Below are positions 16,239 to 41,403 of a stretch of 41,403 bases of DNA, piece by piece. The notes below the pieces were generated by a model. The model saw only the letters and a program-made list of their open reading frames with translations. It was not told the origin of the DNA and ran no database searches. How positions within the stretch are numbered: the stretch's first letter is position 1; the number at the start of each line of letters is the position of its first letter. The DNA is from a virus. The DNA lies in the IMG/VR virus record IMGVR_UViG_3300042197_004928, positions 1-41,403 of that record; one strand, written 5' to 3'. The position numbers and the translations under genes were made by a program.

Positions 16239-16400
16239 TCAGTCGAGATGCAGGGCGAGGCCAACGCCCCAGAAGAGCCATTCCAACGTAAGCGAAACCG
16301 ACGGCGTGCCACAGCAGTCGCACTCGTCGCGGGTGAGCAGCAGCGTGGGCAGCAACGGCAGCTGCGGGCACTCGTAGTCGCAGAGAAGGATCAGGCTCAT
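16239..16400 (-). CDS. Small Cys-containing protein after the portal gene
   Basis: 53 residues (MSLILLCDYECPQLPLLPTL...). The ATG at 16400 overlaps the portal stop (ATGA). It contains four Cys (CDYEC, CDCC) and ends in a hydrophobic segment LEWLFWGVGLALHL that could enter a membrane. It occupies the slot where Mu encodes gpF. Function unknown. Confidence 0.5.
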   Translation of the reverse strand: MSLILLCDYECPQLPLLPTLLLTRDECDCCGTPSVSLTLEWLFWGVGLALHLD

Positions 16401-18187
16401 GCGGCACCTCCCGGAGCCTTCGTCCGTCCCTTCCTCGCCAGCCACCCGCCCAGCGCGCCGTTGAGCACGGCGGCGCCCATGTTGGCGGTCATCGCGTCGG
16501 CCAGGGCGGTGGTGTCGAGCAGCGGGGCCAGCTCCTCCGGCAGCGCGTTCTGTGCGTGGGTCAGCAGGCGGTCGAACTCGGCGTCGGTGACCTTGGGACT
16601 CTCCGCGGCGAGGATGAGCGCCTGGAACCAGGGCACCGCCCCGCCCAGCCACTTGGCCTCCACGCCGGTGACCGATTCCGCGACGGCGACCGCCAGCTTG
16701 CGTTGCGCCGCCGGTGGCGACGGCTGGCGGGTGGCGGGGGTGGCGGCCGCGACGAGGTCGCCCGGCTTGGGCTCCTGGGGATTGGGTTCCTTGCTCATTG
16801 GATCAGTGGGCATTCCACCCCGCGGCTCCAGCACGGCCTCGCCGTCCTTGGGGATCGGGATGCCGAGCTTATCGTGGGCAAACTGGATGGGCACCCGCAC
16901 CCCGGCCTCGCCGGCGGTCTTGAACATCTCGGCCATCGCCTTCGTGTCCTCCTCCTCCTCAATGTCCGGCACCAGGTAGGGGCATTCCGCGTCGTCGCCG
17001 AAGTTAAGCCGCGACCAGGCGGGGATGAGCTGGCTGTTCAGCACGCGGGCGGCGAACCGGCACACGGCCTGTTCCCGGTCGCTCAGCACGCCGGCATGGA
17101 CCGTGCCCAGGGCGCGGCTGCCGGAATTGCCCACGTCGGTCGTCAGGGTCTGGCCGAGGACAAGGATGTCGCAGATCCGGTCCACGGCGTTGAGCAGGCG
17201 CTCCTGCGGTCCCTCGGCGCTGGCCTTCACCGCCTCGAGCAGCTGGATCGTGGTGCCCTCGGGGAACGCGGCCCAGGCGGCGCTGCCCATGTTGGCCAGC
17301 ATCGCCTCGATCTTGCCGATGGTGTCGGCGTCGGCGCCCTTGGCGTAGTTGGCCCACCGGATCGGCTGGCCGAAGAGCTGGCCGAAGTTGAGGAACCACT
17401 CCCAGGAGAAGTTGCTGGCCGCCCAGAAGAACGCGAGCGGCTGCAGCAGTGCGGCGCCGGCCGGATGCCCCGACTTCTGCTTTGCCACCGCCACCACGAA
17501 CTTGTCTGGCAGGAACTCCACCCAATTCTCTCCGGCTCCCGGCTCCGCGCTCCCGGCTCCGCGCCCCCCGAGCGCCTCGGCCTTCAGCATCAGGCGGTCG
17601 GCCTGGCCGCGGCGATCCGGGTAGCCGTAGAGCTTGGGGTTCACCCAACGCGCAGCGCGCGGCACGACGACGGCGCCCGTCTCGCCCGCACGGGTTTCCC
17701 AGAGGATCTCCTGGACGGAGATGCACTTGCCCCAGCCGTCCAGGATGTCGAACAGCAGGCCCTCGAAATCGTTCTCGTCGCCGAACGGGTCCGGCCGCAT
17801 GCCCCACAGGGCCTCCTCCAGCTGGGCTGCCCGGCGCTCGGCCTCGGCGGTCGGCTTGGCCCCCTTGCGGGCGAACGGTTGGGCGAACCATTCGATGGCG
17901 AGCGCCTTCTCGCGGAGCTTCTTGAGGTTGCCCTGCAGGCGGGGCCAGGTCCGTTCCATCAGGTCGAACATCTCCCACTGCCGCGTGAGGTCGCCCTGGA
18001 GCGCGTCGCGGATGAGGTATTCCACCATCTGTGGGGTGTAGTGCTTCACCTCCGGCGCGAGCCAGCGGTCCTGCACGGCGGGATTGAGCCACCAGTCGCC
18101 GAGCGGTTCGGACCGAGGCCGAGGGGCGGCGGCCGCCCAGCGGGCGAAGGCGAGGGCGGGTTTGGCGAGGGCGGCGCGGAGGTTCAT
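16397..18187 (-). CDS. Portal protein, DUF935 / Mu gp29 family
   Basis: 596 residues starting MNLRAALAKPALAFARWAAA. Hallmarks of DUF935 portals are visible: YTPQMVEYLIRDALQGDLTR, an HEX-like stretch MERTWPRLQGNLKKLREKAL, and the clip/crown part LFDILDGWGKCISVQEILWE. The dodecameric portal forms the DNA entry and exit channel at a capsid vertex. It lies directly after the large terminase (4-bp overlap), as in Mu. Around 17529-17571 a GGGAGC-type repeat encodes an inserted Gly/Ala/Ser/Glu/Pro loop (GAGSAEPGAGEN), apparently tolerated by the fold. The C-terminal 130 residues are Ala/Pro-rich and then helical. Confidence 0.9.
   Translation of the reverse strand: MNLRAALAKPALAFARWAAAAPRPRSEPLGDWWLNPAVQDRWLAPEVKHYTPQMVEYLIRDALQGDLTRQWEMFDLMERTWPRLQGNLKKLREKALAIEWFAQPFARKGAKPTAEAERRAAQLEEALWGMRPDPFGDENDFEGLLFDILDGWGKCISVQEILWETRAGETGAVVVPRAARWVNPKLYGYPDRRGQADRLMLKAEALGGRGAGSAEPGAGENWVEFLPDKFVVAVAKQKSGHPAGAALLQPLAFFWAASNFSWEWFLNFGQLFGQPIRWANYAKGADADTIGKIEAMLANMGSAAWAAFPEGTTIQLLEAVKASAEGPQERLLNAVDRICDILVLGQTLTTDVGNSGSRALGTVHAGVLSDREQAVCRFAARVLNSQLIPAWSRLNFGDDAECPYLVPDIEEEEDTKAMAEMFKTAGEAGVRVPIQFAHDKLGIPIPKDGEAVLEPRGGMPTDPMSKEPNPQEPKPGDLVAAATPATRQPSPPAAQRKLAVAVAESVTGVEAKWLGGAVPWFQALILAAESPKVTDAEFDRLLTHAQNALPEELAPLLDTTALADAMTANMGAAVLNGALGGWLARKGRTKAPGGAA
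17529..17571. repeat. GGGAGC-type repeat inside the portal gene
   Basis: CTCCGGCTCCCGGCTCCGCG and following bases are the reverse-complement form of the repeat. In frame it codes for a short GAGSAEPGAG insert in the portal. Confidence 0.65.
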
Positions 18188-26353: not shown

Positions 26354-26380
26354 AGACCCTCACGTGCCTGCCGGGGTGGT

Positions 26381-26958: not shown

Positions 26959-26982
26959 TTTTCCCCAAGGACGACGAGCACC

Positions 26983-28817: not shown

Positions 28818-28826
28818 CCAATGACA

Positions 28827-29068: not shown

Positions 29069-29087
29069 CTCCCAGATCCAGACTCTC

Positions 29088-29600
29088 ATGAATCCCACCC
29101 CGGACACGTTGCCGACGCCCCTCGCGGCCCGGATCACGCCCAAGCCCACCGCGAAGCAGATTCGCCAGGCCACGGCTATCGCCCTCGCTGAAGAGTATGC
29201 CGATGAGACGGCTCGGCTCCGGCAAGAGAAGGACGAGCTTGCAGCCCGTCTGAACGTCGCCATTGCCGGCTACGCGCAGGAGCATCTCGGCCACCTCGAA
29301 GCGGGGTTCGGCCACTATGGCTCCTACGTGCTCATGACTGTGACCGTGCCCCTGAAGGAGGCCGGACAGTTGGAACTGGGACGCCGGGTCCGGGACGCCG
29401 AACAGGCACTGGAACGGCGCCGGCTGAAGACGGCCACCGACTTCCTCGGCGAACTCAACAAGGCCGCGAAGGCTTACCAGACCCCGGCCGAGGAACGCCT
29501 GCTGGATGATCCTGAGATCAAGGCCGCCCTCCTCTCCGCCGGACACACGGCGCTCGGTCGGCCCACGGCCGCCGACAAGGCCAACGCCATCGAATCCTAA
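29088..29600 (+). CDS. Early-region helical protein, unknown function
   Basis: 170 residues (MNPTPDTLPTPLAARITPKP...). After a Pro/Thr-rich N-terminus come long helices (ATAIALAEEYADETARLRQE; LELGRRVRDAEQALERRRLK) with a small strand segment between them (GSYVLMTVTVPL). A dimeric coiled coil is likely. It precedes the transposase gene by two genes. No family recognised. Confidence 0.55.
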   Translation: MNPTPDTLPTPLAARITPKPTAKQIRQATAIALAEEYADETARLRQEKDELAARLNVAIAGYAQEHLGHLEAGFGHYGSYVLMTVTVPLKEAGQLELGRRVRDAEQALERRRLKTATDFLGELNKAAKAYQTPAEERLLDDPEIKAALLSAGHTALGRPTAADKANAIES

Positions 29601-29604
29601 GCCC

Positions 29605-29892
29605 ATGACCACCACCGCCCTCGACCTCGAACGGCTCGCCGCCGCGCCCCACGGCGTGCGGGACCCGCTGCCGGAGTTTTTCCTGACGGCCACGAGCGGG
29701 ACACCCAAGAGCCTTTGGTCGGACGTCGCGCAGGGGCACCCCACACAGCACAGGGCCGGGGCGGCCCTGCGGCTGGTGACCCGGACGGCCAGCAGCCCGT
29801 TCGGCCCGCGGCCGGTGCTGTGCACGGCCCTGATTGCCCGGACGCCCCAGGGCGTTGCCATCACCACCCTCGCCAGCCACGGCGCCAATTGA
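29605..29892 (+). CDS. Small early protein upstream of the transposase, unknown function
   Basis: 95 residues from ATG 29605 (MTTTALDLERLAAAPHGVRD...). Mixed helix and strand with a C-terminal sheet-like TALIARTPQGVAITTLASHG. It ends 2 bp before the transposase ATG, so translation is probably coupled. No motif recognised. Confidence 0.5.
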   Translation: MTTTALDLERLAAAPHGVRDPLPEFFLTATSGTPKSLWSDVAQGHPTQHRAGAALRLVTRTASSPFGPRPVLCTALIARTPQGVAITTLASHGAN

Positions 29893-29894
29893 AC

Positions 29895-31913
29895 ATGAGC
29901 CTTTCCCCGCCGAATCCCCACTCCCTGGACGCCGAGCGCAGCCTACCGGACGCGACCGGGGCCACTTCACTCCTCCCGGTGCCAGCCGGCGCTCTGGCAC
30001 CGGACTTTGGGGGTGGCGAGCTGGCGGAGGCGGCGCCCAGCGGCAAGACGGCGCGGCAATGGCAGGAGGCGGAACGTCGCCACCGGCTGGTGCTCCTGTT
30101 CCGGTCGCTGCAGGCGGACGGGCAGAGCGGCCGCGAGGCGGCGGAGGCGGTGCGGGCGGTGGACGCGCACAGCAGCCACCCCACGCTGTCCCGCTGGGAC
30201 CGGGCCTTTGCCGCCCGCGGGTTCGCCGGCCTGTTCGACAGCCGGGAGCTGGCCGGCCGCCCCCGGAAACACCAGCTCCACGAAAAGGAGACGCGGGCGC
30301 TGAAGGCCGCCTACCTGGCGACCAACCGCACCGCGGACAGCGGCAGCGTGGCCGAGGCCGTGCGCCTGGCCCATCGCCGCGGGGAGCTGCGCCCCGAACT
30401 CGCGGCCGACTTCCTGGAACGCGACCGCACGGGCCGCATGGTGCCCCGCGCCCTGGCCGCCGAGATCACGGCCGCCCCGGCGGTCGTGCGCCAGCACCGG
30501 AACCCGACGGACGCGGCCCTCGACTTCCTGAACGCGCCCGGCGCGAGCATGTGGCTGACCGACGAGCGGACGGGCGAGGAACGGCCGGTGCGGGTGGGCG
30601 ACATCCTGGAGGCGGACGACGCCACGGTGAACTTCCCGGTGTGCGTGCCCTGGGAGCTAGGCGGCGATCCGTGCTCGGAACGCTGGGGCGTGCGGGTGGC
30701 CCGGTTCCAATGGCTGGTGGCGATTGACCGGGCGAGCCGGTTCGTGCCCGGCTGGAGCTACACGGCCCGGCCCCGGTCGAGCTACCGCGCCGAGGATCTG
30801 CTGTCGCTGTTCCACGGCCTGTTCCGCGAGCACGGGGTGTGGCTGCGGGTGTGCCTCGAACGCGGTTCCTGGGAGGCGCACAAGGTCAGCGCGATGCTCG
30901 AGCAGCTCCGCATCGCGCGGATGACGGCCTGGAGCCCGCACCAGAAGACCTACATCGAAGGGCTGTTCAACCTGCTCTGGACGAAGCTGAGCGACGTGCC
31001 GGGCCAGGTGGGCCGCTTCCAGGGCGAGGAGGAGGAGACCAACCGCATCCTCACGAGCTGCCAGCGCGGGGCGACCGATCCCCGGCTGCATTTCCCGCTG
31101 CTGGGCACGGCGCTCGACGCCTTCCGGCGCGCCACGGCCGAGCGGAACGCCCAGGCGGTGAAGTCGCCCCAGTTCGGCACCTGGGTGCCGGAGGAACGCT
31201 GGCTGGCGCAGCAGGCCGAGGCCCGCGAGAGGGGCCGCCTGCGGCCGTTGGCGACCGAGGCCGCGTGGCTGTTCGCCCCCGAGATGCGCAAGTGGACCGT
31301 GGCCGGCAACACGGTGGGCGGCTCGGTCCAAGTCATGGAAGGGCTGAGCCTCCGGTTCGATTTCGCGGCGGAATGGCTGGTGGAATTCGCGGGCGCCGAG
31401 GTGCGCGTCCACTTCGACCCGGCCGCCCCGCGCTGCGAGGCGACCGTGGTGCTTGCGCAGAACGTGCGGGACCACCGGGCCGGCGAGGTGCTGGGCACGG
31501 CCGTGCAGGTGAACAAGACGGCCCGCTACGCCCGCAAGGTGCTGGGCTGGGGCGACGACGCCGACCTGGGCCTGCAAATGCGCCAGCAGGCCGCCACGGC
31601 GCTGCGCCGCGAGGTGCGGACGATCCGGGCCGGCGGCGGCACGGGCCTGAGCGTGACCGAGGCCCGCGACGGGCTGGGCAACAGCCTCACCGTGGAGCGG
31701 GGAGCGGCGATCCCCGAGCAGGGAGCCGGGAGCGCGGAGCGGGAAGCGGCCGTCGCCCGGCCAGTGCGCGGCCGGGAGCCGGCCGTGACGGCGCCGCGGC
31801 GCGGCACCAACCCGTTTGCCTCGGCCACGGAGGTCGAATTCGAGGAGCAACGCCGGCGCCTGGCCCGCCGACGGACCACGGCTGCGAAGCTCGAGGAACT
31901 GATGACGCCCTGA
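29895..31913 (+). CDS. MuA-like DDE transposase
   Basis: 672 residues. The N-terminal part (about 45-130) holds HTH-like DNA-binding segments (HPTLSRWDRAFAARGFAGLF). The RNase-H-like core has D241/D242 in ILEADDATVNFPV, then LVAIDRASRFVPGW, and E355 in SPHQKTYIEGLFNLLW, the Glu of the DDE triad. At the second position the aligned motif is CLERGSWEAHKV with Glu322 where MuA has Asp336. A beta-barrel-like region (about 440-520) and a C-terminal tail follow; 31693-31750 carries a GGGAGC-type repeat as linker. The C-terminal LARRRTTAAKLEELM could contact the MuB-like ATPase encoded next. It would insert the phage genome and replicate it by transposition. Confidence 0.88.
   Translation: MSLSPPNPHSLDAERSLPDATGATSLLPVPAGALAPDFGGGELAEAAPSGKTARQWQEAERRHRLVLLFRSLQADGQSGREAAEAVRAVDAHSSHPTLSRWDRAFAARGFAGLFDSRELAGRPRKHQLHEKETRALKAAYLATNRTADSGSVAEAVRLAHRRGELRPELAADFLERDRTGRMVPRALAAEITAAPAVVRQHRNPTDAALDFLNAPGASMWLTDERTGEERPVRVGDILEADDATVNFPVCVPWELGGDPCSERWGVRVARFQWLVAIDRASRFVPGWSYTARPRSSYRAEDLLSLFHGLFREHGVWLRVCLERGSWEAHKVSAMLEQLRIARMTAWSPHQKTYIEGLFNLLWTKLSDVPGQVGRFQGEEEETNRILTSCQRGATDPRLHFPLLGTALDAFRRATAERNAQAVKSPQFGTWVPEERWLAQQAEARERGRLRPLATEAAWLFAPEMRKWTVAGNTVGGSVQVMEGLSLRFDFAAEWLVEFAGAEVRVHFDPAAPRCEATVVLAQNVRDHRAGEVLGTAVQVNKTARYARKVLGWGDDADLGLQMRQQAATALRREVRTIRAGGGTGLSVTEARDGLGNSLTVERGAAIPEQGAGSAEREAAVARPVRGREPAVTAPRRGTNPFASATEVEFEEQRRRLARRRTTAAKLEELMTP
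31693..31750. repeat. GGGAGC-type repeat inside the transposase gene
   Basis: Units such as GGAGCGGGGAGCGGC and GAGCAGGGAGCCGGGAGCGC code for the linker AIPEQGAGSAEREA between the barrel and the C-terminal tail of the transposase. Confidence 0.7.
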
Positions 31914-31948
31914 ATTTCGGCGCCGCACCGGCGCCACGGAGGAACCAC

Positions 31949-33058
31949 ATGGACAAGAATGAACTGCCCGACGCGGACGGGAACGGACCGCTGATCAAAT
32001 GGGACGATGTCACCATCGCCCGCGAATGCGAACACCTGCCGCCCGACCTGCGCCAGCCCTACCGCTGGCTGAAGACCTACGGCCGCGAACATTGCCATCG
32101 CGACCTGGACGTGCTCACCAACCACTTCGCGGCGGCCGGGGTGCATCACGACAGGACCACCTGGAGCAAGATCGTGCGCGGGCGGTGGAAGCGGAACCGC
32201 CGGGGCGAGGAAGTCGCCACGCCGGTCATGGCCAAGGAACGGCTCCTGGACGCGATCCAGTCGCTCCAGATTAACAGCCGGCGGGACGAGACCCAGGGGC
32301 TGATCCCCTTCGTGGAGACGCCGGCCTGGGAATCCATCCGCGACTACATTGACCTCAAGCGCGAACCGCAGAGGGTCAACAAGTTCGGCATCATCGTCGG
32401 CCCGACCGGGGCGCAGAAGTCCGCGAGCTTCAAGCGCTACCACCTGCTGAACAACCACGGCACCGGCCACGTGGTGGAATGCCCGGAGCGGTCCAACTAC
32501 GGCGAGTTCCTGACGCTGTGGGCGGAGTGCTACGGCGGGTCGAAGCGGGGCACCTTCGACCAGAAGCGGGCGAAGATCCGCGAGGCGACCGCGCTGGGCA
32601 CCGCGGCCCAGCGGGCGCGGCGTTATGTCGTCTTCGACAATGCGCAGGAACTCTGGCGCGAGGACTCGGGGCCGGACCAGCCCGCGTTCTCATTCATGCG
32701 GCGCGTCCAGGATGAGACGGGCATCACCATCATCCTGAGCATCACCGACCTGTTCGAGAAGACGCTCCTGGCGGGCCTGATCAACGGCTACTTCGAGCAG
32801 TTCGAGGGGCGGACCGGCGGGCGGCGCTCCTGGTTGCGGCTGCCCAAATACGCGACCGACGAGGACGTGCGCCGGATCGCGGAGGCGCTCGGGTTCGGGA
32901 CCAACAAGGAGACGCTCGCCTACCTCGGCGGGATCTCGCGCGAGCCCGGCCGCATCCGGCGGCTGTTCGAGGATCTGCAGGAAGCCAAGCGGCTGGCGGC
33001 GGCGGATGACGAGCCGCTCGCCCTGAAGCACCTGCGCGAAGCCAGGGGGGACCTGTGA
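31949..33058 (+). CDS. MuB-like AAA+ target-capture ATPase
   Basis: 369 residues from ATG 31949, preceded by GGAGG 6 nt upstream. The N-terminal 95 residues include an HTH-like part (TTWSKIVRGRWKRNRR). Walker A is at about 151-158 (GPTGAQKS) and Walker B at about 225-231 (RYVVFDNAQELW). A sensor-type segment (IIILSITDLFEKTL) follows, and a C-terminal helical domain (LAYLGGISREPGRIRRLFED). MuB polymers on DNA select target sites, protect the phage from self-insertion, and activate MuA. It directly follows the transposase as in Mu. Its own stop overlaps the next gene's GTG. Confidence 0.88.
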   Translation: MDKNELPDADGNGPLIKWDDVTIARECEHLPPDLRQPYRWLKTYGREHCHRDLDVLTNHFAAAGVHHDRTTWSKIVRGRWKRNRRGEEVATPVMAKERLLDAIQSLQINSRRDETQGLIPFVETPAWESIRDYIDLKREPQRVNKFGIIVGPTGAQKSASFKRYHLLNNHGTGHVVECPERSNYGEFLTLWAECYGGSKRGTFDQKRAKIREATALGTAAQRARRYVVFDNAQELWREDSGPDQPAFSFMRRVQDETGITIILSITDLFEKTLLAGLINGYFEQFEGRTGGRRSWLRLPKYATDEDVRRIAEALGFGTNKETLAYLGGISREPGRIRRLFEDLQEAKRLAAADDEPLALKHLREARGDL

Positions 33059-33267
33059 AGACCTGCCCCTGCACCCGCGAGCGGATGGCCGAGGGCAACC
33101 TGGTCGGTCCCGCGTGCTGGAAGTCGCTGCCGGCCGACGTGCGCCAACGCTGGAATGCCGCGCGGGTGCGCGACGAGAAGCTGCCCGTGGCCCGCGAGAT
33201 CATCCGCCACGCCCGGTCCCGCCGGCCGAAGAAGGAACCCACCGTAACCCAGGCCCACCTGCTATGA
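33055..33267 (+). CDS. Small basic protein, unknown function
   Basis: 70 residues from a GTG overlapping the MuB-like stop (GTGA). It has a Cys pair near the start (KTCPCTRERMAEGNLVGPAC, three Cys) and a basic middle (EIIRHARSRRPKKEP). It could be a small metal-binding or DNA-binding accessory factor. Coupled by ATGA to the following gene. Confidence 0.5.
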   Translation: MKTCPCTRERMAEGNLVGPACWKSLPADVRQRWNAARVRDEKLPVAREIIRHARSRRPKKEPTVTQAHLL

Positions 33268-33527
33268 ATACCCATCCCCTCTTCACCGGTCCGGTCGGCG
33301 AGGTGCGTCTCGAATACGTCCTGCGCCGCGAGCGCGAGGGCGACTACCTGGCCAAGCTGGTCAACACCACCGCGGGCACGTGGACCACCGGCCTCGGCGG
33401 CTCGGCGTTGCAAGCGGTGGCCCATGCCCTCACCCAGCCGCTGCGCCGTGGGCGCATCGGCGAGGAACCCACCGAACCCACCGCCGACGGGCCCGGCCCC
33501 GACGCCACCGAAGGAGTCCCCGCGTGA
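33264..33527 (+). CDS. Small early protein, unknown function
   Basis: 87 residues (MNTHPLFTGPVGEVRLEYVL...). The first 55 residues are strand-rich with RLEYVLRREREGDYLAKLVN; the end is Glu/Pro/Thr low complexity. ATGA and GTGA overlaps on both sides support translation. No family recognised. Confidence 0.5.
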   Translation: MNTHPLFTGPVGEVRLEYVLRREREGDYLAKLVNTTAGTWTTGLGGSALQAVAHALTQPLRRGRIGEEPTEPTADGPGPDATEGVPA

Positions 33528-33709
33528 AACCCGACATCACCACCGTCGACATGGTCCTGTGCTTCCTGGCCCTCGGCTTCACCGGCCTCTGGCTCGTCGC
33601 GTGCATCTGCTACGCCCACTGCCGCGGCGATGCCGAGATCGGCGTGGCAGAGACGCAGGGGCGGGAGCCCGAAGCAGGGAGCGGGGAGCACGGAGCAGAA
33701 AGAATCTGA
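33524..33709 (+). CDS. Single-pass membrane mini-protein
   Basis: 61 residues from GTG 33524. A transmembrane helix at about 10-30 (MVLCFLALGFTGLWLVACIC) follows a short N-terminus. The tail EAGSGEHGAERI is encoded by a GGGAGC-type repeat (33657-33700). Small membrane proteins in the Mu early region include Kil-type toxins, so host-membrane action is possible but unproven. Confidence 0.5.
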   Translation: MKPDITTVDMVLCFLALGFTGLWLVACICYAHCRGDAEIGVAETQGREPEAGSGEHGAERI

Positions 33710-33729
33710 AAGCAGGAAAGCAGGAGACC
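33657..33729. repeat. GGGAGC-type repeat followed by GAAAGCAGGA units
   Basis: AGGGGCGGGAGCCCGAAGCA then GGGAGCGGGGAGCACGGAGC, followed by TGAAAGCAGGAAAGCAGGA (33707-33725), which supplies the stop and the ribosome binding region of the Gam-like gene. Confidence 0.65.
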
Positions 33730-33736
33730 AAAACCA

Positions 33737-34303
33737 ATGAGCAAAAAGACCAAGACCAAACCGCTGTTCGCCGTCATCCCGAATGAGGATGCGCTGGCGG
33801 CCGCCGCCAACCGCTACGTGGAGCTGAGCCTGAAGCTGCAGAAGAAGAAGGCTGCCCACGAGCAACGCCTCGCGGAGGCCAACACCGAGTTCGACCAGGA
33901 CACGGCCGAACTCGTTGCCGAGATCGCCGGGCTGGAGGCGGGCTGCCAGCTGTTCGCCGAGACGCACCGGGAACTGTTCCCGGAGGATGCCAAGGACGGG
34001 CCGCGCTCGCGCGCCTATCGCAACGCCGTGATCGGGTTCCGGTGGAATCCCTTCAAGGTCGAGAAGCGGGTGGGCAAGGACACGTTCGAGGCGATTGCCG
34101 AGCGCCTGGGGGCTGTGCCCTGGGGCGAGCCGTATCTCCGCCAGGCCGATCCGGTGGTGGACAAGGACGCGCTGCTGAAGAACCAGGCGGAGCTGACCGA
34201 GGACCAGCTCGCGACGGTCGGCATCAAGTTCACGCGCGGGGAGACGTTCTTCATCGACCCCGTGTTCGAGACCGCCGAAGCCGTCCGGAAGGAGGCAGCT
34301 TGA
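33737..34303 (+). CDS. gam: Mu Gam-like DNA end-protection protein
   Basis: 188 residues. The layout matches PF07352: an N-terminal coiled coil (RYVELSLKLQKKKAAHEQRL, then EANTEFDQDTAELVAEIAGL), followed by FRWNPFKVEKRVGKDTFEAI in place of the family's conserved strand region, and TRGETFFIDPVFE near the end. Gam is a Ku-like protein that binds double-strand ends and shields linear phage DNA from host exonuclease. It follows the transposition genes as in Mu. Confidence 0.85.
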   Translation: MSKKTKTKPLFAVIPNEDALAAAANRYVELSLKLQKKKAAHEQRLAEANTEFDQDTAELVAEIAGLEAGCQLFAETHRELFPEDAKDGPRSRAYRNAVIGFRWNPFKVEKRVGKDTFEAIAERLGAVPWGEPYLRQADPVVDKDALLKNQAELTEDQLATVGIKFTRGETFFIDPVFETAEAVRKEAA

Positions 34304-34530
34304 AACGGCGCTTCCCGCATTACGAGGTTGCGCAGCCGGCGCCCCGCGTGGAACGGCTGGACCTGATCGCGGCGGGCACTGACCCGCTCAAGCGGCGGCG
34401 CTTTGGGTTTCAGCCGGTGCCGCGGCCGCCCGCGACGGAGGATGGTCCACCCGCGCCCCTGACCGCTGAGGATCTGCGCCGGCTGAAGGCGGCGGGCGTC
34501 ATCCGCGAACCCAGGAGGGCCGAAGCATGA
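34300..34530 (+). CDS. Small basic protein with TTG start
   Basis: 76 residues. The only start consistent with coupling is TTG at 34300, overlapping the Gam stop (TTGA) and preceded by GGAGG 5 nt upstream. The protein is basic and Pro-rich (PLKRRRFGFQPVPRPPATED), with a helical end LTAEDLRRLKAAGVI. Function unknown. Confidence 0.5.
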   Translation: MKRRFPHYEVAQPAPRVERLDLIAAGTDPLKRRRFGFQPVPRPPATEDGPPAPLTAEDLRRLKAAGVIREPRRAEA

Positions 34531-34766
34531 GCACCGTGGAAAGGCTGCGCCTGCATCATCGGGCAATCCTGGTGCTGACCGAGATCCAGCGGATTGAGGA
34601 CACGGTGAAGGCATTCTCCCAGGAGTGGTTCGAGCGCCAGGCCCCGGCAGATCAGGAGGAAGTGCTGGAGCAGATCGAGACAACGGACCGGCTGGGCTTC
34701 GAGGCCGAGGCGCGCCTGGCGTTGTTCCCCCTGAAACCGACCCGGCCGGCGAATCCCGAAGGCTGA
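34527..34766 (+). CDS. Small helical early protein, unknown function
   Basis: 79 residues (MSTVERLRLHHRAILVLTEI...). Almost all helix, with EWFERQAPADQEEVLEQIET, probably a coiled-coil dimer. ATGA-coupled to the previous gene. No family recognised. Confidence 0.5.
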   Translation: MSTVERLRLHHRAILVLTEIQRIEDTVKAFSQEWFERQAPADQEEVLEQIETTDRLGFEAEARLALFPLKPTRPANPEG

Positions 34767-34769
34767 GCC

Positions 34770-35255
34770 ATGAACGCCACCCTGCCGAACGCCACCCTGC
34801 CGCCATTGGCCAAACGGATCGCCGCGCTGCACGCCTGGTATCAGTCCAACGTGCTGCCGCAGCGGCTGACGCCCGAGGTGGAACGGCTGTGGTTCACGTT
34901 CTTCCAGCAGGGCTACAACGGGCAGCAGCTCGCCCGCGTGGTGCGGTATCTGCGCGGCGAGATCGCCGAACGGCGCCGCAACGCGGGGGCGCTGAAGCTG
35001 CGGAACCTGCTCGCCCTGGACGAGGCCGGCTCGCTCACCGCGTTCGATGAGGATCTGGCGCTGGCCAGTGCGGGGCAGAACCTGCGGTCCGACAAACGCC
35101 TGGCGCCGGTGCCCGACGGGGAGCGCGAGGTGCGGGAGCAGGGAGCGCCGAGCGGGGAGCCGGCAGCCGGGAGCACGGCGGGCCGGCTGGCTGATCCGGC
35201 GGCGGTGGCGGTCTTCCAAGAGGAACTGCGGAAACTGCGGGAGGAACTGCGATGA
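34770..35255 (+). CDS. Early protein, unknown function
   Basis: 161 residues. Residues 1-95 form a helical domain (LAKRIAALHAWYQSNVLPQR; LWFTFFQQGYNGQQLARVVR). The stretch 35117-35180 is a GGGAGC-type repeat that codes for a Gly/Glu/Pro/Ala linker (REQGAPSGEPAAGSTAG), followed by a coiled-coil end. It resembles small replication or regulatory accessory proteins of Mu-like early regions only in position. Confidence 0.5.
   Translation: MNATLPNATLPPLAKRIAALHAWYQSNVLPQRLTPEVERLWFTFFQQGYNGQQLARVVRYLRGEIAERRRNAGALKLRNLLALDEAGSLTAFDEDLALASAGQNLRSDKRLAPVPDGEREVREQGAPSGEPAAGSTAGRLADPAAVAVFQEELRKLREELR
35117..35180. repeat. GGGAGC-type repeat inside an early gene
   Basis: CGGGGAGCGCGAGGTGCGGG, then GAGCAGGGAGCGCCGAGCGG and further units code for a low-complexity linker. 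Confidence 0.65.
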
Positions 35256-35803
35256 CCCAGGCGCAGCACAAACGCTTTTACCTGCCGGCCTGGAACCGGG
35301 CCTTCGCCGCCAACTGGCGCCGGGACCGGGGCACGGTGGCCCGGCTCGACGGCCGCGAATCCACCGAGCTGCTCACCGCCGTGGAGACGGCGGCGGTGGC
35401 CAGGGCGGTGCGGCGCTTCGGTCGGGTGGTGGCCGACGACCTGCGACACGCCTGCCACGAGGTGGCCCTGCGGCGCGACAAAAGCAGCCTCGACCTGACG
35501 ACCGGCGAGGCCAACCGGGTGGTGGCCCTCTTTGATCTGTTGGCCGATCCGCTGGACCTGAAGGCGCGGGTGCGCTGGGAATGCCCGGAGCGCGCCGAGG
35601 AAGAGTCGCTGCGGGCGGCCTTGCGGCGGTTCCCGGTCGCTTACGTGGTCCAAGTGTGCCGCGACAAATTCGGCACGCGGTATTGGGAGCAGTTGCGGCT
35701 GCCGGAGCTGCGGATGCTGCACGTGACCCTCAGGGAACGGTTCAAACAGCGAAGACGCGAAGACGCGAAGGCAGAGCCCAATCAGGAAGGCAGGAAGGCA
35801 TGA
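35252..35803 (+). CDS. Early protein, unknown function, EGRKA tail
   Basis: 183 residues (MTQAQHKRFYLPAWNRAFAA...). Helical throughout, with an Arg-rich second half (YVVQVCRDKFGTRYWEQLRL). The last residues NQEGRKA come from a GGAAGGCA repeat that also serves as ribosome binding site for the next ATG. ATGA overlap at both ends. Function unknown. Confidence 0.55.
   Translation: MTQAQHKRFYLPAWNRAFAANWRRDRGTVARLDGRESTELLTAVETAAVARAVRRFGRVVADDLRHACHEVALRRDKSSLDLTTGEANRVVALFDLLADPLDLKARVRWECPERAEEESLRAALRRFPVAYVVQVCRDKFGTRYWEQLRLPELRMLHVTLRERFKQRRREDAKAEPNQEGRKA
35783..35803. repeat. GGAAGGCA junction cassette
   Basis: CAGGAAGGCAGGAAGGCATG carries the ribosome binding site, the next start and the previous stop. 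Similar cassettes are at 36880-36899 and, shorter, at 37133-37147. A related string GCGAAGACGCGAAGACGCGA lies just upstream (35752-35771). Confidence 0.7.
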
Positions 35804-36507
35804 ACGAACGCGAAGCCATCATTGAGAAGATCCGAAAGCTGCTGCGGATGCAGCGTGGCGGCACACCGGGCGAGGTTGCCAACGCCCTGAGGCTCGCCCA
35901 GGAGCTGGCCGCCAAGCACGGCGTGGACCTTGGCGCGGTCAATCCCGACGAGGCCGCCGCCAAACCCATCGGCCATGGGGACGCCCTGGCTGGCTCGCAG
36001 ATCCGCTGGGAAGCCAAGTATGCCGGTCTGGTCTGCCAGCAGTTCTTCCGGGTCGAAGTGTTCGTGCGGCTGAAGGGGTGGAAGGCCATCTCGCTGACCA
36101 AGGTCTTCAGCCTCACGTTTGTGGGCACGGAGTGGGACCGGGAGATCGCCCGCCATGTGTTCGACTTCCTGCTGGGCCACTTCCGCCGCGAATGGCGGAC
36201 CAACCGGGGCCGGCTGCGGAACCGCCAGGCGTTTCTCTACGGGATGTATCGTGGCATCTGCCACCGGCTGCAGCAGCGCCAGCCGGTGCCCGACCCGGCC
36301 GACCCGCAGGCGCTGATCGTGAGCCAGGGACAGCTCGCCCGGCAGACCTATGTCCGCGAGCACTTCGGCGAAACGACCGGCGAGAGCATTGATCCCGACG
36401 GCGATGCGGTCGCCGCGAAGCTGGCGGGCCTCAGCGCCGGGCTCGCCACCGAGATCCGGCCCGGACTCTACGGCAGCCAGGACGAACGCCGGCTGATCGC
36501 CGCCTGA
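35800..36507 (+). CDS. DUF2786-domain phage protein
   Basis: 235 residues from ATG 35800. Residues 1-45 match DUF2786 (AIIEKIRKLLRMQ ... GEVANALRLAQELAAKHGVD). The rest, with GTEWDREIARHVFDFLLGHF and RNRQAFLYGMYRGICHRLQQ, fits the extended domain common in phage and mobile-element DUF2786 proteins, whose function is not established. It is in the Mu early/middle region between small regulators. Confidence 0.75.
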   Translation: MNEREAIIEKIRKLLRMQRGGTPGEVANALRLAQELAAKHGVDLGAVNPDEAAAKPIGHGDALAGSQIRWEAKYAGLVCQQFFRVEVFVRLKGWKAISLTKVFSLTFVGTEWDREIARHVFDFLLGHFRREWRTNRGRLRNRQAFLYGMYRGICHRLQQRQPVPDPADPQALIVSQGQLARQTYVREHFGETTGESIDPDGDAVAAKLAGLSAGLATEIRPGLYGSQDERRLIAA

Positions 36508-36509
36508 CC

Positions 36510-36899
36510 ATGACCACCGAACCCGAGCTCAACCTGTTCGCCGCGCCGCCGCCGGTGGCGGCGCCGACGTCGTTTGAGGTCGCGTGGTTCGTGGACGTGC
36601 TGCGCGGGCGCGACTGGATCACGGCCGAGGCGCTGCTGACGGAACTGGGGCAGCCCGTGGTGGAAACGCTGAAGCGCCGGCTACGGGCCCTGGCCGAGGC
36701 CAGCGAGGGCCGGATCAGCAGCGGGGACGAAGGCTACAAGCTGACCGTGGAGATGACGGCCGAGGAGTTCGGCAAGTTCGACCGGCGCCTGGCGAACCAG
36801 GAGGCGAAGATGAAGGCCCGCCGCGTGGCGGCGCACATCGTATTCTACAGCCGGACGAACGTGAACCGCTCAGTGAATCTGGAAGGCAGGAAGGCATGA
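36510..36899 (+). CDS. Winged-helix-like early regulator, unknown
   Basis: 129 residues. Residues about 20-85 (FEVAWFVDVLRGRDWITAEA, LLTELGQPVVETLKRRLRAL) look like a winged helix: an HTH followed by SSGDEGYKLTVEM. The C-terminal half is basic helix. It ends NLEGRKA from the GGAAGGCA cassette. DNA binding is inferred. Confidence 0.5.
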   Translation: MTTEPELNLFAAPPPVAAPTSFEVAWFVDVLRGRDWITAEALLTELGQPVVETLKRRLRALAEASEGRISSGDEGYKLTVEMTAEEFGKFDRRLANQEAKMKARRVAAHIVFYSRTNVNRSVNLEGRKA

Positions 36900-37147
36900 A
36901 ACTGACCGCCGAACAGCAGGTGTGGTTCGACGCCCAGACCAACAGTCCGGCGCGCGTGAACCCGTGTGTTCGGCTGTATGGCCACGGACCGGCGGACGCC
37001 AAGTGCAAGACGTGCGCCTTCCTGTTCTATCACACGACGGCCCGGCGATTCTGGAAGTGCCACCTCCGAATCTTTACTCGGGGCCCGGCCTCGGACCACC
37101 GCGTCAACTGGCCCGCGTGCGGCAAATACGAGGAACGGAAGGCATGA
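36896..37147 (+). CDS. Small Cys-rich, probably zinc-binding protein
   Basis: 83 residues (MKLTAEQQVWFDAQTNSPAR...). Cys at CVRLYG, CKTC, KCHL and AC, with His residues between, suggest one or two metal sites. The pattern RRFWKCHLRIF...DHRVNWPACGKYE is reminiscent of small phage zinc proteins. It ends EERKA from the junction cassette and is ATGA-coupled on both sides. Confidence 0.55.
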   Translation: MKLTAEQQVWFDAQTNSPARVNPCVRLYGHGPADAKCKTCAFLFYHTTARRFWKCHLRIFTRGPASDHRVNWPACGKYEERKA

Positions 37148-37416
37148 ACCTGCTCGACGCCCTCACGACCCTGCTGGACGCCACCGTGGAGCTGGATGAC
37201 CGGCCGCACCTGCGTCGTGCCCGGCGGCGCCTAGCCGAGAAGGCGGAGGCGCTGCAGGCCAAGCGGCAGCGGTTGCGGGATCTGGCGGAAGGCCGCTGCT
37301 ACCAATGCCAGCAAACGCGCTGCGTAAGCGTGTCCCAATGCCCGTTCGCCGCGGCCCTCGGCGACGCCAAGCAGTGCAACTGCTGCCCGACCTGCCGACA
37401 GAAATGCCACCGTTGA
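37144..37416 (+). CDS. Small coiled-coil protein with Cys-rich tail
   Basis: 90 residues. An N-terminal helix (NLLDALTTLLDATVELDDRP, then basic RARRRLAEKAEALQAKRQRL) leads to a tail with nine Cys (GRCYQCQQTRC, QCPF, QCNCCPTCRQKC), probably binding two zinc ions. It is the second Cys-rich gene in a row and lies 3 bp before the gpF-like gene. Confidence 0.55.
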   Translation: MNLLDALTTLLDATVELDDRPHLRRARRRLAEKAEALQAKRQRLRDLAEGRCYQCQQTRCVSVSQCPFAAALGDAKQCNCCPTCRQKCHR

Positions 37417-37419
37417 CCC

Positions 37420-40143
37420 ATGCAATTCACCAAACCCATCCCGTTTGAGGAGGCCGTGGACCGGCTCGGCGCGAAGACCGTGGTCGGCGCGAAGCTCGAC
37501 ACGGCCGCGTGGCAGCGGGTGCCGCTGGCGTTGCGCGAGCGGGCGTTCTTCTCGGCCAAGGTCGAGGACGCCCGGTTCCTCGCGGACCTGAAGGGCTGGC
37601 TCCGGGACTTCCAGACGGCGGCGCGTGAGGACGTGCCGCAACCGGACGGCACCACGGTGACCGCGCTGAAGGTCGGCAGCCGGGCGCAGTTCGTGGACCT
37701 CGCGCGGCGCAAGGCGCTGGCCCTGGGGCTCGACCGGGTGGTGGACCCGGAACAGCGCGGCAGCCTCCAGGACATCACCAGCGAACGAAGGCTCAGCCTG
37801 ATCTTCGACGTGCAGACCGAGCAGGCGAACAGCTTTGGCGACTGGCAGCAGGGCATGGACGCGGACGTGCTGAACGAGTTCCCGGCCTGGCGCTTCATCC
37901 GCACCGGCGAACCTCAGGCGCCCCGGCCAGTTCACCAGGCGCACGTGAACGAGGTGAGGCTGAAGACGGACCTCGAGTTCTGGCGGGCGATGAACGACCC
38001 GAGCTTCGGCGGCTTCGGCGTGCCCTGGGGGCCGTGGGGCTTTGGCTCGCTGATGGACACGGAGGACGTGGACCGCGGCGAGGCCGAATCCCTGGGGCTG
38101 CTGCAGCCGGGCCAACGCCTGGAACCCGCCACGCGGGATTTCAACGAAGGGCTGAAGGCGAGCGTCCGCGGCCTGGACGAGCCGATGCAGCGCTGGCTGC
38201 AGGCGCAGCTCGGCGACTCGGTGAAGCTCGAGGACGGGGCCGCCTGGTGGAAGGGCGACCGCACCGGCAAGGCCCTGGCCGGGGTGCCGCCGCGGTCCCG
38301 CCGGGCACCGGCCGCGCCCGTGCCGGCCGAGTTCGACGAGCAGGGCTTCCCCACGGACCTGGCCCACCTGGAGAAAGTGCGGGCGCTGGGCGGGAGCACG
38401 GGGGCCGAGCTGGTGCGCGATCCGCGGAGCGGCCGGCTGTTTGTCCGCAAGGAGGGCAACTCGCCGGAGCATGTGCGCGAGGAATTCACGGCCGACCAGC
38501 TCTACCGGGCGGCGGGCGTGCCGGTGCCGGCCGCGCGCCTCTACGACGGACCGAAGCCGGTGAAGCTGGCCGAGTTCGTGGAAGGGCAGACGCTGCAGCA
38601 GTATCTGGCCAAGGCGACGCCGGCCCAGCGGGACGCGGTGATCGGCAAGCTGCGCGAGCACTTCGCGGTGGATGCGCTGCTGGGCAACTGGGACGTGACG
38701 GGCACGGGCCTGGACAACGTGCTGGTGGACCGGGCGGGCACGCCCTGGCGGATCGACAACGGCGGGTCACTGCGCTTCCGCGCCCAGGGCATGGCGAAGA
38801 CGGCGAAGGAATGGCACGGGTATCCGACCGAGCTGTGGACGATGCGGGAGCAGGGCAAACTGGCCGGCAAGGTGTTCCACGGGCTGGGCTTCTACGACGT
38901 GGCGCGGCAGCTCGAGACGCTGCCCGGCGCGGCAATCCTGGCGGCGGCGCCGGCGGATCTGCGCGACACGCTCGCGGCGCGGCTGGCGGAGCTGGCGAAG
39001 GTGGCCCGCAAGGCGCGGGACTTTGAGTCGACGCAGTATGTGGCGGCCTACGCGGACCGGGTGTGCGAGCAGATGATGGCGCTGCGGAACTCGGACGTGT
39101 TCCGCCGGCTATCGCGGGAACTGGTCCAGGAGAAGGCCGGGGACTACGTGCTGCGCGACGAGAACGGCCTGCCGTTCGACCACCTGCGGACGCTGAAGGG
39201 CAACAAGGTGGCGGACGTCAGCCAGAACTACTTCGAGGTGATCAGCAAGGCGGCGATCTCGGTCAATTCCCACCACAAGAAGGGCGACCTGGCTTACAAT
39301 GCGACGTCGCTCCAGGCCGCCCTGAAGCTGCAGCCGGAACTGGAAAAGTTGGCCAGGGACGGCACCGCGCCCCAGCAGGAGCTGGCCAGCCACTACCTCC
39401 AGTCGCTGAAGGCCATCGTCGCGGCCCAGGGCAACCTCAAGGCCACCGTGCCGATGGTGACGAAGCACGCCTGGACGCCGCCCGACGCGGACGGCAAGTC
39501 GGTGGTCGCCGCCTTCGCGGAATGGATGCAGGAGCACGGCGGCGACTGGAACGTGGTGAGCCAATGGGCGGGCGCGCAGGCGGGCAGCTCGAAGAGCGAG
39601 GCGAGCCGGGCGTGGAAGTGGCACCTGCTGCAGCAGCTGGAGGGCGCCAAGGCTTCCGAGTTTCACAATCCACCGAAGAAGGCCGACCTCGACACCGTGC
39701 GGAAGGCGCACGGGGACAAATACGAACGGTCGCTGGAGCAGTTTCACGCGTTCGTCCAGGAAGTGCTGGAGCGCCTGACCTTTCCCGGCAGCGACCGGGA
39801 GCAGCGGGTGATGCGGCTGCTGCGGACGGAGACGACGGCGAGCGCGGTGACCATTCCCAAGGGACAGACCGGCGAATACAAACGCGGGGTGAACGAGTCG
39901 GGGTCGCTTTACATGCCCGTCTTCGACGGCGCGCGGACGGTCACAGCGGTGCCGTTTACGCGCATCACCAGCCTCTACTTTTTCGAGCGGACGCCGGGCA
40001 CGGGCGGAAGTCTGCTGCTCGGTGACGGGGAGAACGAGGCGACTTACATTGGCTGGAAACTCAGGACGCTGAACCTCGGCGAGTTGCCGAAGGGCAAGGT
40101 GCCGCTGAAGACGACGACGAACCGGAAGGATTGGGAGCTATGA
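37420..40143 (+). CDS. Mu gpF-like minor head protein fused to a kinase-like domain
   Basis: 907 residues. Residues about 1-230 resemble phage Mu gpF head morphogenesis: RRLSLIFDVQTEQANSFGDW ... PAWRFIRTGEPQAPRPVHQA ... DLEFWRAMNDPSFGGFGVPW. Residues about 325-480 form a kinase-like fold: K344 in LFVRKEGN, E354/E355, hinge LAEFVEGQTLQQYL, D425 and N433 in NWDVTGTGLDNVLVD, and D446 in WRIDNGGSLRFRAQG. Residues about 600-780 are helical (WMQEHGGDWNVVSQW). The last 110 residues may be a third, possibly ADP-ribosyltransferase-like, domain. gpF is a virion component, so the fused domains could be delivered into the cell with DNA. The gene is displaced from its usual place between portal and gpG. 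The kinase call is by pattern. Confidence 0.7.
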   Translation: MQFTKPIPFEEAVDRLGAKTVVGAKLDTAAWQRVPLALRERAFFSAKVEDARFLADLKGWLRDFQTAAREDVPQPDGTTVTALKVGSRAQFVDLARRKALALGLDRVVDPEQRGSLQDITSERRLSLIFDVQTEQANSFGDWQQGMDADVLNEFPAWRFIRTGEPQAPRPVHQAHVNEVRLKTDLEFWRAMNDPSFGGFGVPWGPWGFGSLMDTEDVDRGEAESLGLLQPGQRLEPATRDFNEGLKASVRGLDEPMQRWLQAQLGDSVKLEDGAAWWKGDRTGKALAGVPPRSRRAPAAPVPAEFDEQGFPTDLAHLEKVRALGGSTGAELVRDPRSGRLFVRKEGNSPEHVREEFTADQLYRAAGVPVPAARLYDGPKPVKLAEFVEGQTLQQYLAKATPAQRDAVIGKLREHFAVDALLGNWDVTGTGLDNVLVDRAGTPWRIDNGGSLRFRAQGMAKTAKEWHGYPTELWTMREQGKLAGKVFHGLGFYDVARQLETLPGAAILAAAPADLRDTLAARLAELAKVARKARDFESTQYVAAYADRVCEQMMALRNSDVFRRLSRELVQEKAGDYVLRDENGLPFDHLRTLKGNKVADVSQNYFEVISKAAISVNSHHKKGDLAYNATSLQAALKLQPELEKLARDGTAPQQELASHYLQSLKAIVAAQGNLKATVPMVTKHAWTPPDADGKSVVAAFAEWMQEHGGDWNVVSQWAGAQAGSSKSEASRAWKWHLLQQLEGAKASEFHNPPKKADLDTVRKAHGDKYERSLEQFHAFVQEVLERLTFPGSDREQRVMRLLRTETTASAVTIPKGQTGEYKRGVNESGSLYMPVFDGARTVTAVPFTRITSLYFFERTPGTGGSLLLGDGENEATYIGWKLRTLNLGELPKGKVPLKTTTNRKDWEL

Positions 40144-40478
40144 CGACACTGGTGGAACGACTGGATGAGGAGCCGGGCTTCGAGTGCCGGCGCGCGTGGA
40201 TCGCCGACAACGACGGCCGCCCCGAGGCGCGGGCTGACATCGGCGGAATCGAGTGCGTGATCGAGACCAAGGAAACGATCCTGGAGGCGGGGGTCGCGAC
40301 CTGCATCCCGCTGGACCCGGAGTGGGAGGAGAATTGGCCGCTCTGGGTGCGCGTATCGGTGGACGGGGAGGAGAAGTTGCTGCAGTGCGCGACGGCCGAC
40401 GCGCGCGTGGTGGCGGCGGCGCGGCAGTTTGCCGCGCTGCAGGCGGCGGGCCGCGCGGAGATCGGAAAGGAGCTTTGA
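40140..40478 (+). CDS. Small acidic protein, unknown function
   Basis: 112 residues from ATG 40140, overlapping the gpF-like stop (ATGA). The order strand, helix, strand with ADIGGIECVIETKETILEAG and WVRVSVDGEEKLLQCATADA suggests a compact mixed fold. Coupling to the gpF-like gene hints at a linked role, such as a virion or accessory partner. No family recognised. Confidence 0.5.
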   Translation: MTTLVERLDEEPGFECRRAWIADNDGRPEARADIGGIECVIETKETILEAGVATCIPLDPEWEENWPLWVRVSVDGEEKLLQCATADARVVAAARQFAALQAAGRAEIGKEL

Positions 40479-40481
40479 CCT

Positions 40482-40832
40482 ATGTGGATCGCGAGCAAAT
40501 TGGGGTTCTACAGCATCGTGCAGAAGACGGCCGGCGAATGGCACGTCCGGGCGCGGCTGCGGGCCGACCTGGTCAACCTGGTGAACGCGGTTTACCGGGA
40601 GCCGGCGGCGGTCGTGGAGACCATTGAGGAGTGGCCGACGGCGGATTACCGCTGGCGCATCCTGGTGACCGACGCGGGGGAGCTGGCGGGGATCTTCGCG
40701 GCCCTGGGCGACTCGGTGGACTACCCAAACTTCAAGGCCGAGGTGGGGCGGCGGCCGGATCAGACGGCCAAGCTGCCGGCCTATCACGCCCTGTGGGCGA
40801 GCCTTCACACCCTGCAAAACCAAGCCACCTGA
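40482..40832 (+). CDS. Conserved small hypothetical protein (MWI-x-KxGFYSIVQK type)
   Basis: 116 residues. The start MWIASKLGFYSIVQKTAGEW, then VRARLRADLVNLV, ADYRWRILV and VDYPNFKAEVGRRPDQ recall a small conserved protein found in many bacteria and phages whose function is not known to me. It is 3 bp after the previous gene. The fold looks like an alpha/beta sandwich. Confidence 0.6.
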   Translation: MWIASKLGFYSIVQKTAGEWHVRARLRADLVNLVNAVYREPAAVVETIEEWPTADYRWRILVTDAGELAGIFAALGDSVDYPNFKAEVGRRPDQTAKLPAYHALWASLHTLQNQAT

Positions 40833-40897
40833 ACATGCCAAAAGGCCGGGGCCGCGTTGGCGCGCAGCCCCGACCCGGACGCAGCCAGCTCACTGCA

Positions 40898-41095
40898 ATG
40901 AGCCAGCCGCTTAATACCATCCACGCGACGATGTTTTACACGGAAGGTCAGACAACGGCGGTCCTCGTGGACCGCGCGGGCCGGCGGGGGCGGCGGCGGC
41001 GCTTCGCCACGGCCGAGGCGGCGCTGGGTTGGTGCCGCGCCCATGCCACGGTGTTTGTCTGGCTGCCCACGAGCCCCGATCCGAGCGCGAACTGA
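40898..41095 (+). CDS. Small basic protein, unknown function
   Basis: 65 residues from ATG 40898 (MSQPLNTIHATMFYTEGQTT...); an in-frame ATG at 40835 would give 86 residues with an extra Gly/Arg-rich leader, and neither has a clear ribosome binding site. Strand TTAVLVDRAGRRGRRRRFAT then a helix, FATAEAALGWCRAH. Stop and next start share a base (TGATG). Confidence 0.45.
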   Translation: MSQPLNTIHATMFYTEGQTTAVLVDRAGRRGRRRRFATAEAALGWCRAHATVFVWLPTSPDPSAN

Positions 41096-41403
41096 TGGCC
41101 CGGAAACATCAACCTGACGAGACGGTGCAACCCCTGTTGCCCCTGTTCATCCCGACGATCCAGATCCGCCAGGCGGACGGGTCGATCCTGGTGAAACCGG
41201 GCAAGGCGGTGGCCCTCCTGACGCCGAAGCAGTTTGGCGAACAGGTGGGCCTGGGGCCGGACGCGATCCGGCGCAAGATCGGGTCGGATGCCCTGCCGGA
41301 GGCGTTCGTCGAGTATGCCGGCCCCAAGCTGATCCGTATCCGTTCCGAGGCCCTGGAGCACTTCCGGGAGCACTATCGGAACCTGCGCGGCCTCGGCGCC
41401 TGA
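41095..41403 (+). CDS. HTH protein in the Mor-like position
   Basis: 102 residues. The core LLTPKQFGEQVGLGPDAIRR, then EYAGPKLIRIRSEALEHFRE resembles an excisionase/MerR-type HTH followed by a wing. In Mu the last early gene, mor, activates middle and so late transcription; this gene has the corresponding place at the end of the rightward operon, but its sequence is not Mor-like. It may be a late activator or an excisionase-type architectural protein. The window ends with its stop codon. Confidence 0.55.
   Translation: MARKHQPDETVQPLLPLFIPTIQIRQADGSILVKPGKAVALLTPKQFGEQVGLGPDAIRRKIGSDALPEAFVEYAGPKLIRIRSEALEHFREHYRNLRGLGA

What the first reader, a model, noticed from the sequence alone, without database searches (positions are those of the whole stretch)
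37420..40143. gpF-like head protein carrying a kinase-like domain, displaced to the early strand
Mu gpF is normally encoded between portal and gpG. Here that slot (16239-16400) holds only a 53-residue ORF, and the gpF-like gene is 19 kb away on the opposite strand, behind early genes. It is also 907 residues long, with kinase-like residues K344, D425, N433 and D446. A virion protein with an enzyme domain could be injected and act on the host at once.
Basis: partly seen in the sequence, partly recalled or inferred. Interest (0 to 1): 0.72.

Follow-up and report, generated by a model that had tools for sequence, protein, structure and literature searches.

The report
Phage head protein with kinase and ADP-ribosyltransferase

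Summary
The 907-codon gene is real, its four named residues are correct, it is the window's only gpF (MuF) homologue, and the portal-gpG slot holds only an unconserved 53-codon ORF. Residues 7-236 join the MuF superfamily through intermediates with strong PF04233 hits. Residues 304-548 give a very confident kinase-fold model (pLDDT 97; best match H. pylori CtkA, Z 14), with catalytic-type residues kept in 71 relatives. The early-strand position is not unique: a 51%-identical relative has the same divergent layout, and other relatives also encode MuF before the terminase. Best reading: a MuF-anchored, two-enzyme virion effector with a cognate small partner, a new variant of MuF polymorphic/polyvalent effectors. 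Virion location, injection, catalysis, targets and immunity are inferred, not shown.

The parts
37420..40143 (+). 907-aa MuF + kinase-like + ART-like protein gene
   Evidence: ORF and coding score; 51% identical full-length homologue L166, 40% L126; purifying selection against L001
37438..38127 (+). MuF (gpF/SPP1 gp7-like) head domain, residues 7-236
   Evidence: PHROG_220 minor head protein E 5e-7; Akkermansia phage 'head morphogenesis' E 1e-22; iterated profile reaches PF04233 proteins
38329..39063 (+). kinase-like domain, residues 304-548 (E355, D425, D432, N433, D446 invariant in 71 sequences; K344 in at least 90%)
38449..38451 (+). K344, predicted ATP-binding lysine
38692..38757 (+). catalytic segment D425...D432-N433...D446
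39064..39468 (+). linker and helical region, residues 549-683; roughly 590-690 is absent from many relatives
   Evidence: alignment
39469..40140 (+). ADP-ribosyltransferase-like domain, residues 684-907
39823..40038 (+). R802, S827, E871-N872-E873: R-S-ExE signature, invariant in 29 sequences
40140..40478 (+). 112-aa gene overlapping the effector stop by 4 nt; homologues downstream of the effector in L001, L012 and G394
40482..40832 (+). 116-aa partner gene (MW...GF.S...RAR...DYR...Y.NFK family); candidate immunity or regulatory partner
34527..40832 (+). tightly packed rightward operon that contains the effector
   Evidence: gene gaps -4 to +3
16239..16400 (-). 53-codon ORF in the usual gpF slot; probably not a gpF gene
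16397..18187 (-). Mu-type portal (PF06074)
31949..33058 (+). MuB-like transposition ATPase (PF13401, PF09077)

Best explanation
The gene encodes a MuF-anchored, two-enzyme phage effector. The N-terminal MuF domain docks one or a few copies at the portal in the head. When the DNA enters a new host the protein, or its C-terminal part, enters too. There a CtkA/HipA-like kinase domain and an ADP-ribosyltransferase domain modify host molecules, probably to favour phage takeover or lysogeny. The small genes just downstream, above all the conserved 116-aa partner at 40482-40832, bind and restrain the effector in the producing cell or lysogen, or assist it. Shown here by computation: the three-domain architecture, the predicted folds, conservation of active-site residues, purifying selection, and partner linkage. 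Inferred: incorporation in virions, ejection, both catalytic activities, the targets, and the partner's role.
For: MuF homology: PHROG_220; Akkermansia phage head protein; an iterated N-domain profile recovers L012, L023, L025 and L029, which have PF04233 at E 2e-16 to 6e-19. In a 37-sequence set, 17 have PF04233. Kinase fold: pLDDT 97, pTM 0.93; CtkA Z 14.0 over 211 residues; invariant catalytic-type residues. ART: invariant R-S-ExE, pLDDT 88, all 50 best structural matches are ADP-ribosyltransferases. Kinase and ART recur together: T5-like Dolphis and ST4 and a P. juntendi plasmid prophage, whose NUDIX-kinase-ART gene is next to MuF and portal genes. The kinase domain is also fused to a portal. 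Partner linkage: 30 of 68 non-seed partner loci have the kinase nearby, mostly at its 3' end whatever the strand. Precedents: MuF-ART fusions and T4 Alt injection (PMC5576092, PMC5512222, PMC9503650).
Against: No direct PF04233, kinase or ART Pfam hit in the window protein itself. ART structural similarity is modest (Z 5.4 at best; Foldseek E 0.1). The gene sits in an operon with middle/early genes rather than on the late strand, which could mean it acts in the infected cell without being packaged. The partner family also occurs without any kinase nearby: 38 of 80 viral loci and most bacterial loci. No virion proteomics or biochemistry is at hand.
Confidence: 0.6

Rival explanations
1. Intracellular effector: the protein is made with early/middle genes and its kinase and ART domains act in the infected or lysogenic cell. 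The MuF domain is still needed in a few copies for head assembly, but delivery with DNA is not its purpose.
For: The gene is translationally coupled to an early/middle operon downstream of MuB, and G394 keeps this layout. Some relatives have the kinase in an ORF without MuF (L016, L019, L069).
Against: It is the only MuF homologue in the window, so it should be in the head. In G393 and in L016, and in GodonK, the gene or its kinase-bearing homologue lies close to portal or head genes, and a portal-kinase fusion exists.
Confidence: 0.22
2. Toxin-antitoxin-like or superinfection-exclusion module: the C-terminal half with its downstream small genes serves prophage maintenance or competition, the partner being an antitoxin.
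For: A small gene sits at the effector's 3' end, in either orientation; MuF toxin genes are typically followed by ORFs under 150 aa (PMC5576092).
Against: The partner also accompanies kinase-ART genes in T5-like phages (Dolphis, ST4), which from general knowledge are virulent, and it occurs without kinase.
Confidence: 0.1
3. Pseudokinase: the kinase-like domain binds nucleotide only to regulate or position the ART domain, or catalyses other chemistry such as AMP transfer. (This is compatible with delivery as in the best explanation; its confidence is not exclusive of it.)
For: The spacing D425 to N433 is +8 instead of the usual +5, and there is no HRD/RH motif (general knowledge for the usual spacing).
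Against: K, E, D, N, D positions are conserved in 71 divergent sequences, which is unlike typical pseudokinases, and the best fold match CtkA is described as a Ser/Thr kinase (PMC5536186).
Confidence: 0.25

Closest known systems
MuF polymorphic toxins (Jamet et al. 2017, PMC5576092), including the MuF-ART EFV toxin of Enterococcus faecalis
   Same: MuF domain followed by a swappable enzymatic C-terminus, temperate phage, small ORFs directly downstream
   Different: Two enzyme-like domains in tandem (kinase plus divergent ART); a MuF subfamily below Pfam detection; not encoded after the portal; Verrucomicrobia rather than Firmicutes
Polyvalent proteins of phages (Iyer et al. 2017, PMC5512222)
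   Same: Several effector domains in one head-associated, predicted injected protein; ART and kinase are both listed classes
   Different: Their Verrucomicrobia/Chlamydia kinase family is defined by a conserved His with an insert before the Asp and a conserved Gln, not seen among the conserved columns here
T4 Alt (injected head ADP-ribosyltransferase)
   Same: Proposed mode of action: head-packaged ART delivered with DNA
   Different: From general knowledge no MuF or kinase domain; similarity is functional analogy only, not tested by sequence
Helicobacter pylori CtkA (3akl)
   Same: Kinase fold over 211 residues (Z 14.0); carried on a mobile element
   Different: No sequence-level match; CtkA activity has been tied to an ICE type IV secretion system (PMC5536186), not to a phage head
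Kinase-ART genes of T5-like phages (Dolphis gp117, ST4_109)
   Same: Same kinase family with an ART domain, and the same small partner family downstream
   Different: No MuF domain found; Pfam-recognised ART (PF03496); NUDIX gene in the cluster

Membership tests
MuF superfamily (Mu gpF / SPP1 gp7) | Homology to the MuF domain profile | tested here: met
   No direct PF04233 hit, but PHROG_220 E 5e-7, and an N-domain profile recovers PF04233-positive L012/L023/L025/L029 at E 4e-39 to 6e-47, aligned over the MuF core
MuF superfamily (Mu gpF / SPP1 gp7) | Component of the virion head | not testable with these tools
   Needs virion proteomics
MuF superfamily (Mu gpF / SPP1 gp7) | Gene directly downstream of portal (usual, not defining) | tested here: not met
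   About 19 kb away on the other strand; related genomes also depart from this, others keep it (L111)
MuF polymorphic toxins | Shared MuF N-terminus with different C-termini | tested here: met
   Same N-domain with HExxH tails in Akkermansia phages and G389, with other tails, or with none
MuF polymorphic toxins | Small ORF under 150 aa directly downstream | tested here: met
   112-aa and 116-aa genes; the latter conserved across relatives
MuF polymorphic toxins | Toxic C-terminal activity neutralised by immunity protein | not testable with these tools
   Needs expression assays
Protein-kinase-like superfamily | Kinase fold | tested here: met
   pLDDT 97; CtkA Z 14.0 over 211 residues, and 790 of 999 chains compared have Z >= 8, the rows shown being kinases
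Protein-kinase-like superfamily | Lys/Glu pair, catalytic Asp with Asn, metal-binding Asp conserved | tested here: met
   K344, E355, D425, N433, D446; assignment of roles is by analogy
Protein-kinase-like superfamily | Phosphotransfer activity | not testable with these tools
   Needs biochemistry
Polyvalent-protein kinase family of Iyer 2017 | Conserved His, insert before Asp, conserved Gln in last N-lobe strand | tested here: inconclusive
   Not among the conserved columns of A4; their alignment was not available
R-S-E class ADP-ribosyltransferases | Arg, Ser, ExE active-site residues | tested here: met
   R802, S827, E871/E873 invariant in 29 sequences
R-S-E class ADP-ribosyltransferases | ART fold | tested here: inconclusive
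   All 50 best VIA matches are ARTs but Z <= 5.4; Foldseek best E 0.1
R-S-E class ADP-ribosyltransferases | NAD-dependent transfer | not testable with these tools
   Needs biochemistry

The most novel reading that the evidence does not exclude
The kinase and ART domains form one coupled machine, widespread in head-associated phage proteins (fused to MuF or to portal, or encoded beside them): one modification primes or gates the other on the same host target, and the conserved 116-aa partner is its dedicated substrate, regulator or immunity protein. This would be a previously undescribed two-step injected modification system.
Probability: 0.2. Interest if true: 0.82.

Novelty: new variant of a known kind. 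Interest (0 to 1): 0.62.

Why it matters
It adds a kinase family that the Pfam and NCBIfam scans did not recognise, present in at least 571 IMG/VR stretches, to the arsenal of proteins phages may inject, and pairs it repeatedly with an ADP-ribosyltransferase and a small partner gene. That gives a concrete, testable system for asking how injected virion enzymes reprogramme hosts at once, in the poorly studied phages of Verrucomicrobia and also in T5-like phages of Pseudomonas and Aeromonas, which are closer to laboratory systems.

Tried and rejected
Direct Pfam, NCBIfam and PDB sequence searches with the window protein or its domain profiles gave no significant family. A weak sCache hit and a WCX hit to the partner (E 0.016) were treated as chance. 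Assembly artefact as the cause of the divergent layout: rejected, because G394 has the same order and L001 shows the same right end followed by unrelated, apparently host, genes. A simple toxin-immunity pair exclusive to the kinase: not supported, since the partner also occurs alone. The partner does not follow the MuF domain, being absent beside N-domain-only proteins (several of those loci are short). An attempted dN/dS for 40140-40478 against L001 was invalid because of an indel. HipA itself was not among the listed fold matches; this does not exclude it.

Full report
OBSERVATION. The gene at 37420-40143 is a real 907-codon gene with the strongest coding score in the window. It is the only MuF homologue in six frames of the window. 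The place between the Mu-type portal (PF06074, E 3e-74) and the next late gene holds only a weak, unconserved 53-codon ORF. The effector gene lies in an operon whose genes overlap by 4 nt or sit 2-3 nt apart (34527-40832), downstream of a MuB-like gene.

N-TERMINUS. Residues 5-191 match PHROG_220, minor head protein (E 5e-7), and residues 13-230 match the 'head morphogenesis' protein of Akkermansia phages Chantilly and Chambord (E 1e-22). No Pfam hit is seen in the protein itself. A profile grown from residues 1-240 finds dozens of proteins in Verrucomicrobia and phages and reaches L012, L023, L025 and L029, which carry PF04233 at E 2e-16 to 6e-19, aligned over the MuF core R..H...W...PP..F.C. 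Membership in the MuF superfamily therefore rests on intermediates, not on a direct hit.

KINASE-LIKE DOMAIN. tblastn against phages linked residues 306-494 to 'ADP-ribosyltransferase' genes of T5-like phages and to large proteins of Gordonia phages. A profile search found at least 571 relatives in IMG/VR. In 71 aligned sequences E355, D425, D432, N433, D446, G448 and G449 are invariant and K344 is nearly so. The AlphaFold2 model of residues 304-548 has pLDDT 97 and pTM 0.93. Foldseek and VIA-align return protein-kinase folds throughout; the clear best is H. pylori CtkA (3akl, Z 14.0, 211 residues, rmsd 3.8), then PRPK and RIO2 (Z about 11) and actin-fragmin kinase (Z 10.3). In the viral structure library the top match is a portal protein fused to this same domain (E 7e-24, 43% identity). 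The D-to-N spacing is longer than usual, so catalysis is likely but unproven.

C-TERMINAL DOMAIN. The last 220 residues recur behind the kinase domain in about 28 phage loci with different N-termini. R802, S827 and E871-N872-E873 are invariant, the R-S-ExE pattern of ADP-ribosyltransferases. The model (pLDDT 88) matches ADP-ribosyltransferases in all 50 best VIA rows, but at Z of only 3.6-5.4, and Foldseek gives E 0.1 for the best, CDTa. The fold call is therefore good but not final. ART domains that Pfam does detect (PF03496) sit behind the same kinase domain in Dolphis and a Pseudomonas juntendi plasmid prophage, and below the curated cut-off in ST4. Against L001, dN/dS is 0.16 for the kinase and 0.17 for the ART-like domain, so both are under purifying selection.

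PARTNER GENES. The effector is followed, with a 4-nt overlap and then a 3-nt gap, by a 112-aa and a 116-aa gene. The 116-aa family has 14 invariant positions. It lies downstream of the kinase gene in 16 of 72 kinase-selected loci and in T5-like Dolphis and ST4, and was not found beside MuF proteins without kinase. In an independent scan started from the partner itself, 42 of 80 viral loci have the kinase within 6 kb; without loci used as seeds, 30 of 68, mostly next to the kinase gene's 3' end even when convergent. The partner also occurs without kinase, so the link is strong but not exclusive. [quoted passage not shown]).

LAYOUT. The phage G389 has the same gene set in one direction: transposition genes, early genes, MuF, terminase, portal, tail. 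Chantilly likewise has MuF before the terminase. G394, with a 51%-identical full-length homologue, has exactly the window's divergent layout, with the effector and partners at the outer end. In L001 the genes after the effector are followed by unrelated, apparently host, genes, consistent with the phage's right end. So the position is a lineage trait, not a one-off displacement or an assembly error. In G389 and the Akkermansia phages the same MuF domain carries HExxH tails instead, the swapping expected of MuF polymorphic effectors.

MECHANISM. Most likely: MuF places one or a few copies at the portal (SPP1 gp7: one to two per capsid; PMC5576092), the protein enters with the DNA, and the kinase and ART domains modify host molecules; the partner restrains or assists it in the producer. 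Precedents are T4 Alt and MuF-ART fusions (PMC5512222, PMC9503650, PMC5576092). Virion presence, delivery, both activities, targets and the partner's function are not shown. Its place in an early/middle operon leaves open that it acts inside the infected cell.

NOVELTY. MuF effectors and multi-domain polyvalent proteins are known, as are MuF-ART fusions and another kinase family in Verrucomicrobia phages. I found no paper in the library describing this CtkA-like kinase family in phage heads, its tandem with a divergent ART, or the partner; that is a limited search. I rate it a new variant of a known kind.

Noticed in passing
L126-L204 and Verrucomicrobia genomes: The 116-aa partner family is common on its own, in 26 of 388 Verrucomicrobia genomes and beside DNA polymerase, methylase or other genes in phages; its general function is unknown.
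   Followed up: partly
BFVD A0A6J5S481: The kinase domain is fused to an HK97-type portal protein in an uncultured phage, a second head-protein carrier.
   Followed up: no
L016 5437-7500 and 8945-9769; L019; L069/L070 4395-7911: In some phages the kinase-bearing protein and the MuF protein are separate nearby ORFs, so fusion and splitting have both occurred.
   Followed up: partly
L002 14304-15977, L091 6001-7611: Akkermansia phages and G389 carry the same MuF domain with an HExxH metallopeptidase-like tail in place of kinase-ART.
   Followed up: partly
window 1-23000 (-) versus 25000-41403 (+): Divergent late and early blocks in this Mu-like phage and in G394, while G389 has all modules co-directional: a rearranged genome architecture.
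   Followed up: partly
L005 2579-6979: Pseudomonas juntendi plasmid prophage: a NUDIX-kinase-ART protein directly after portal and MuF genes, three nucleotide-related domains in one head-cluster protein.
   Followed up: partly
L008 1009-10878: Actinomycetia phage DSL-LC01 encodes a 3289-aa protein with the kinase domain just upstream of the capsid maturation protease.
   Followed up: no
L147 1733-5041: A MuF protein with a weak intein-like region next to a partner gene.
   Followed up: no
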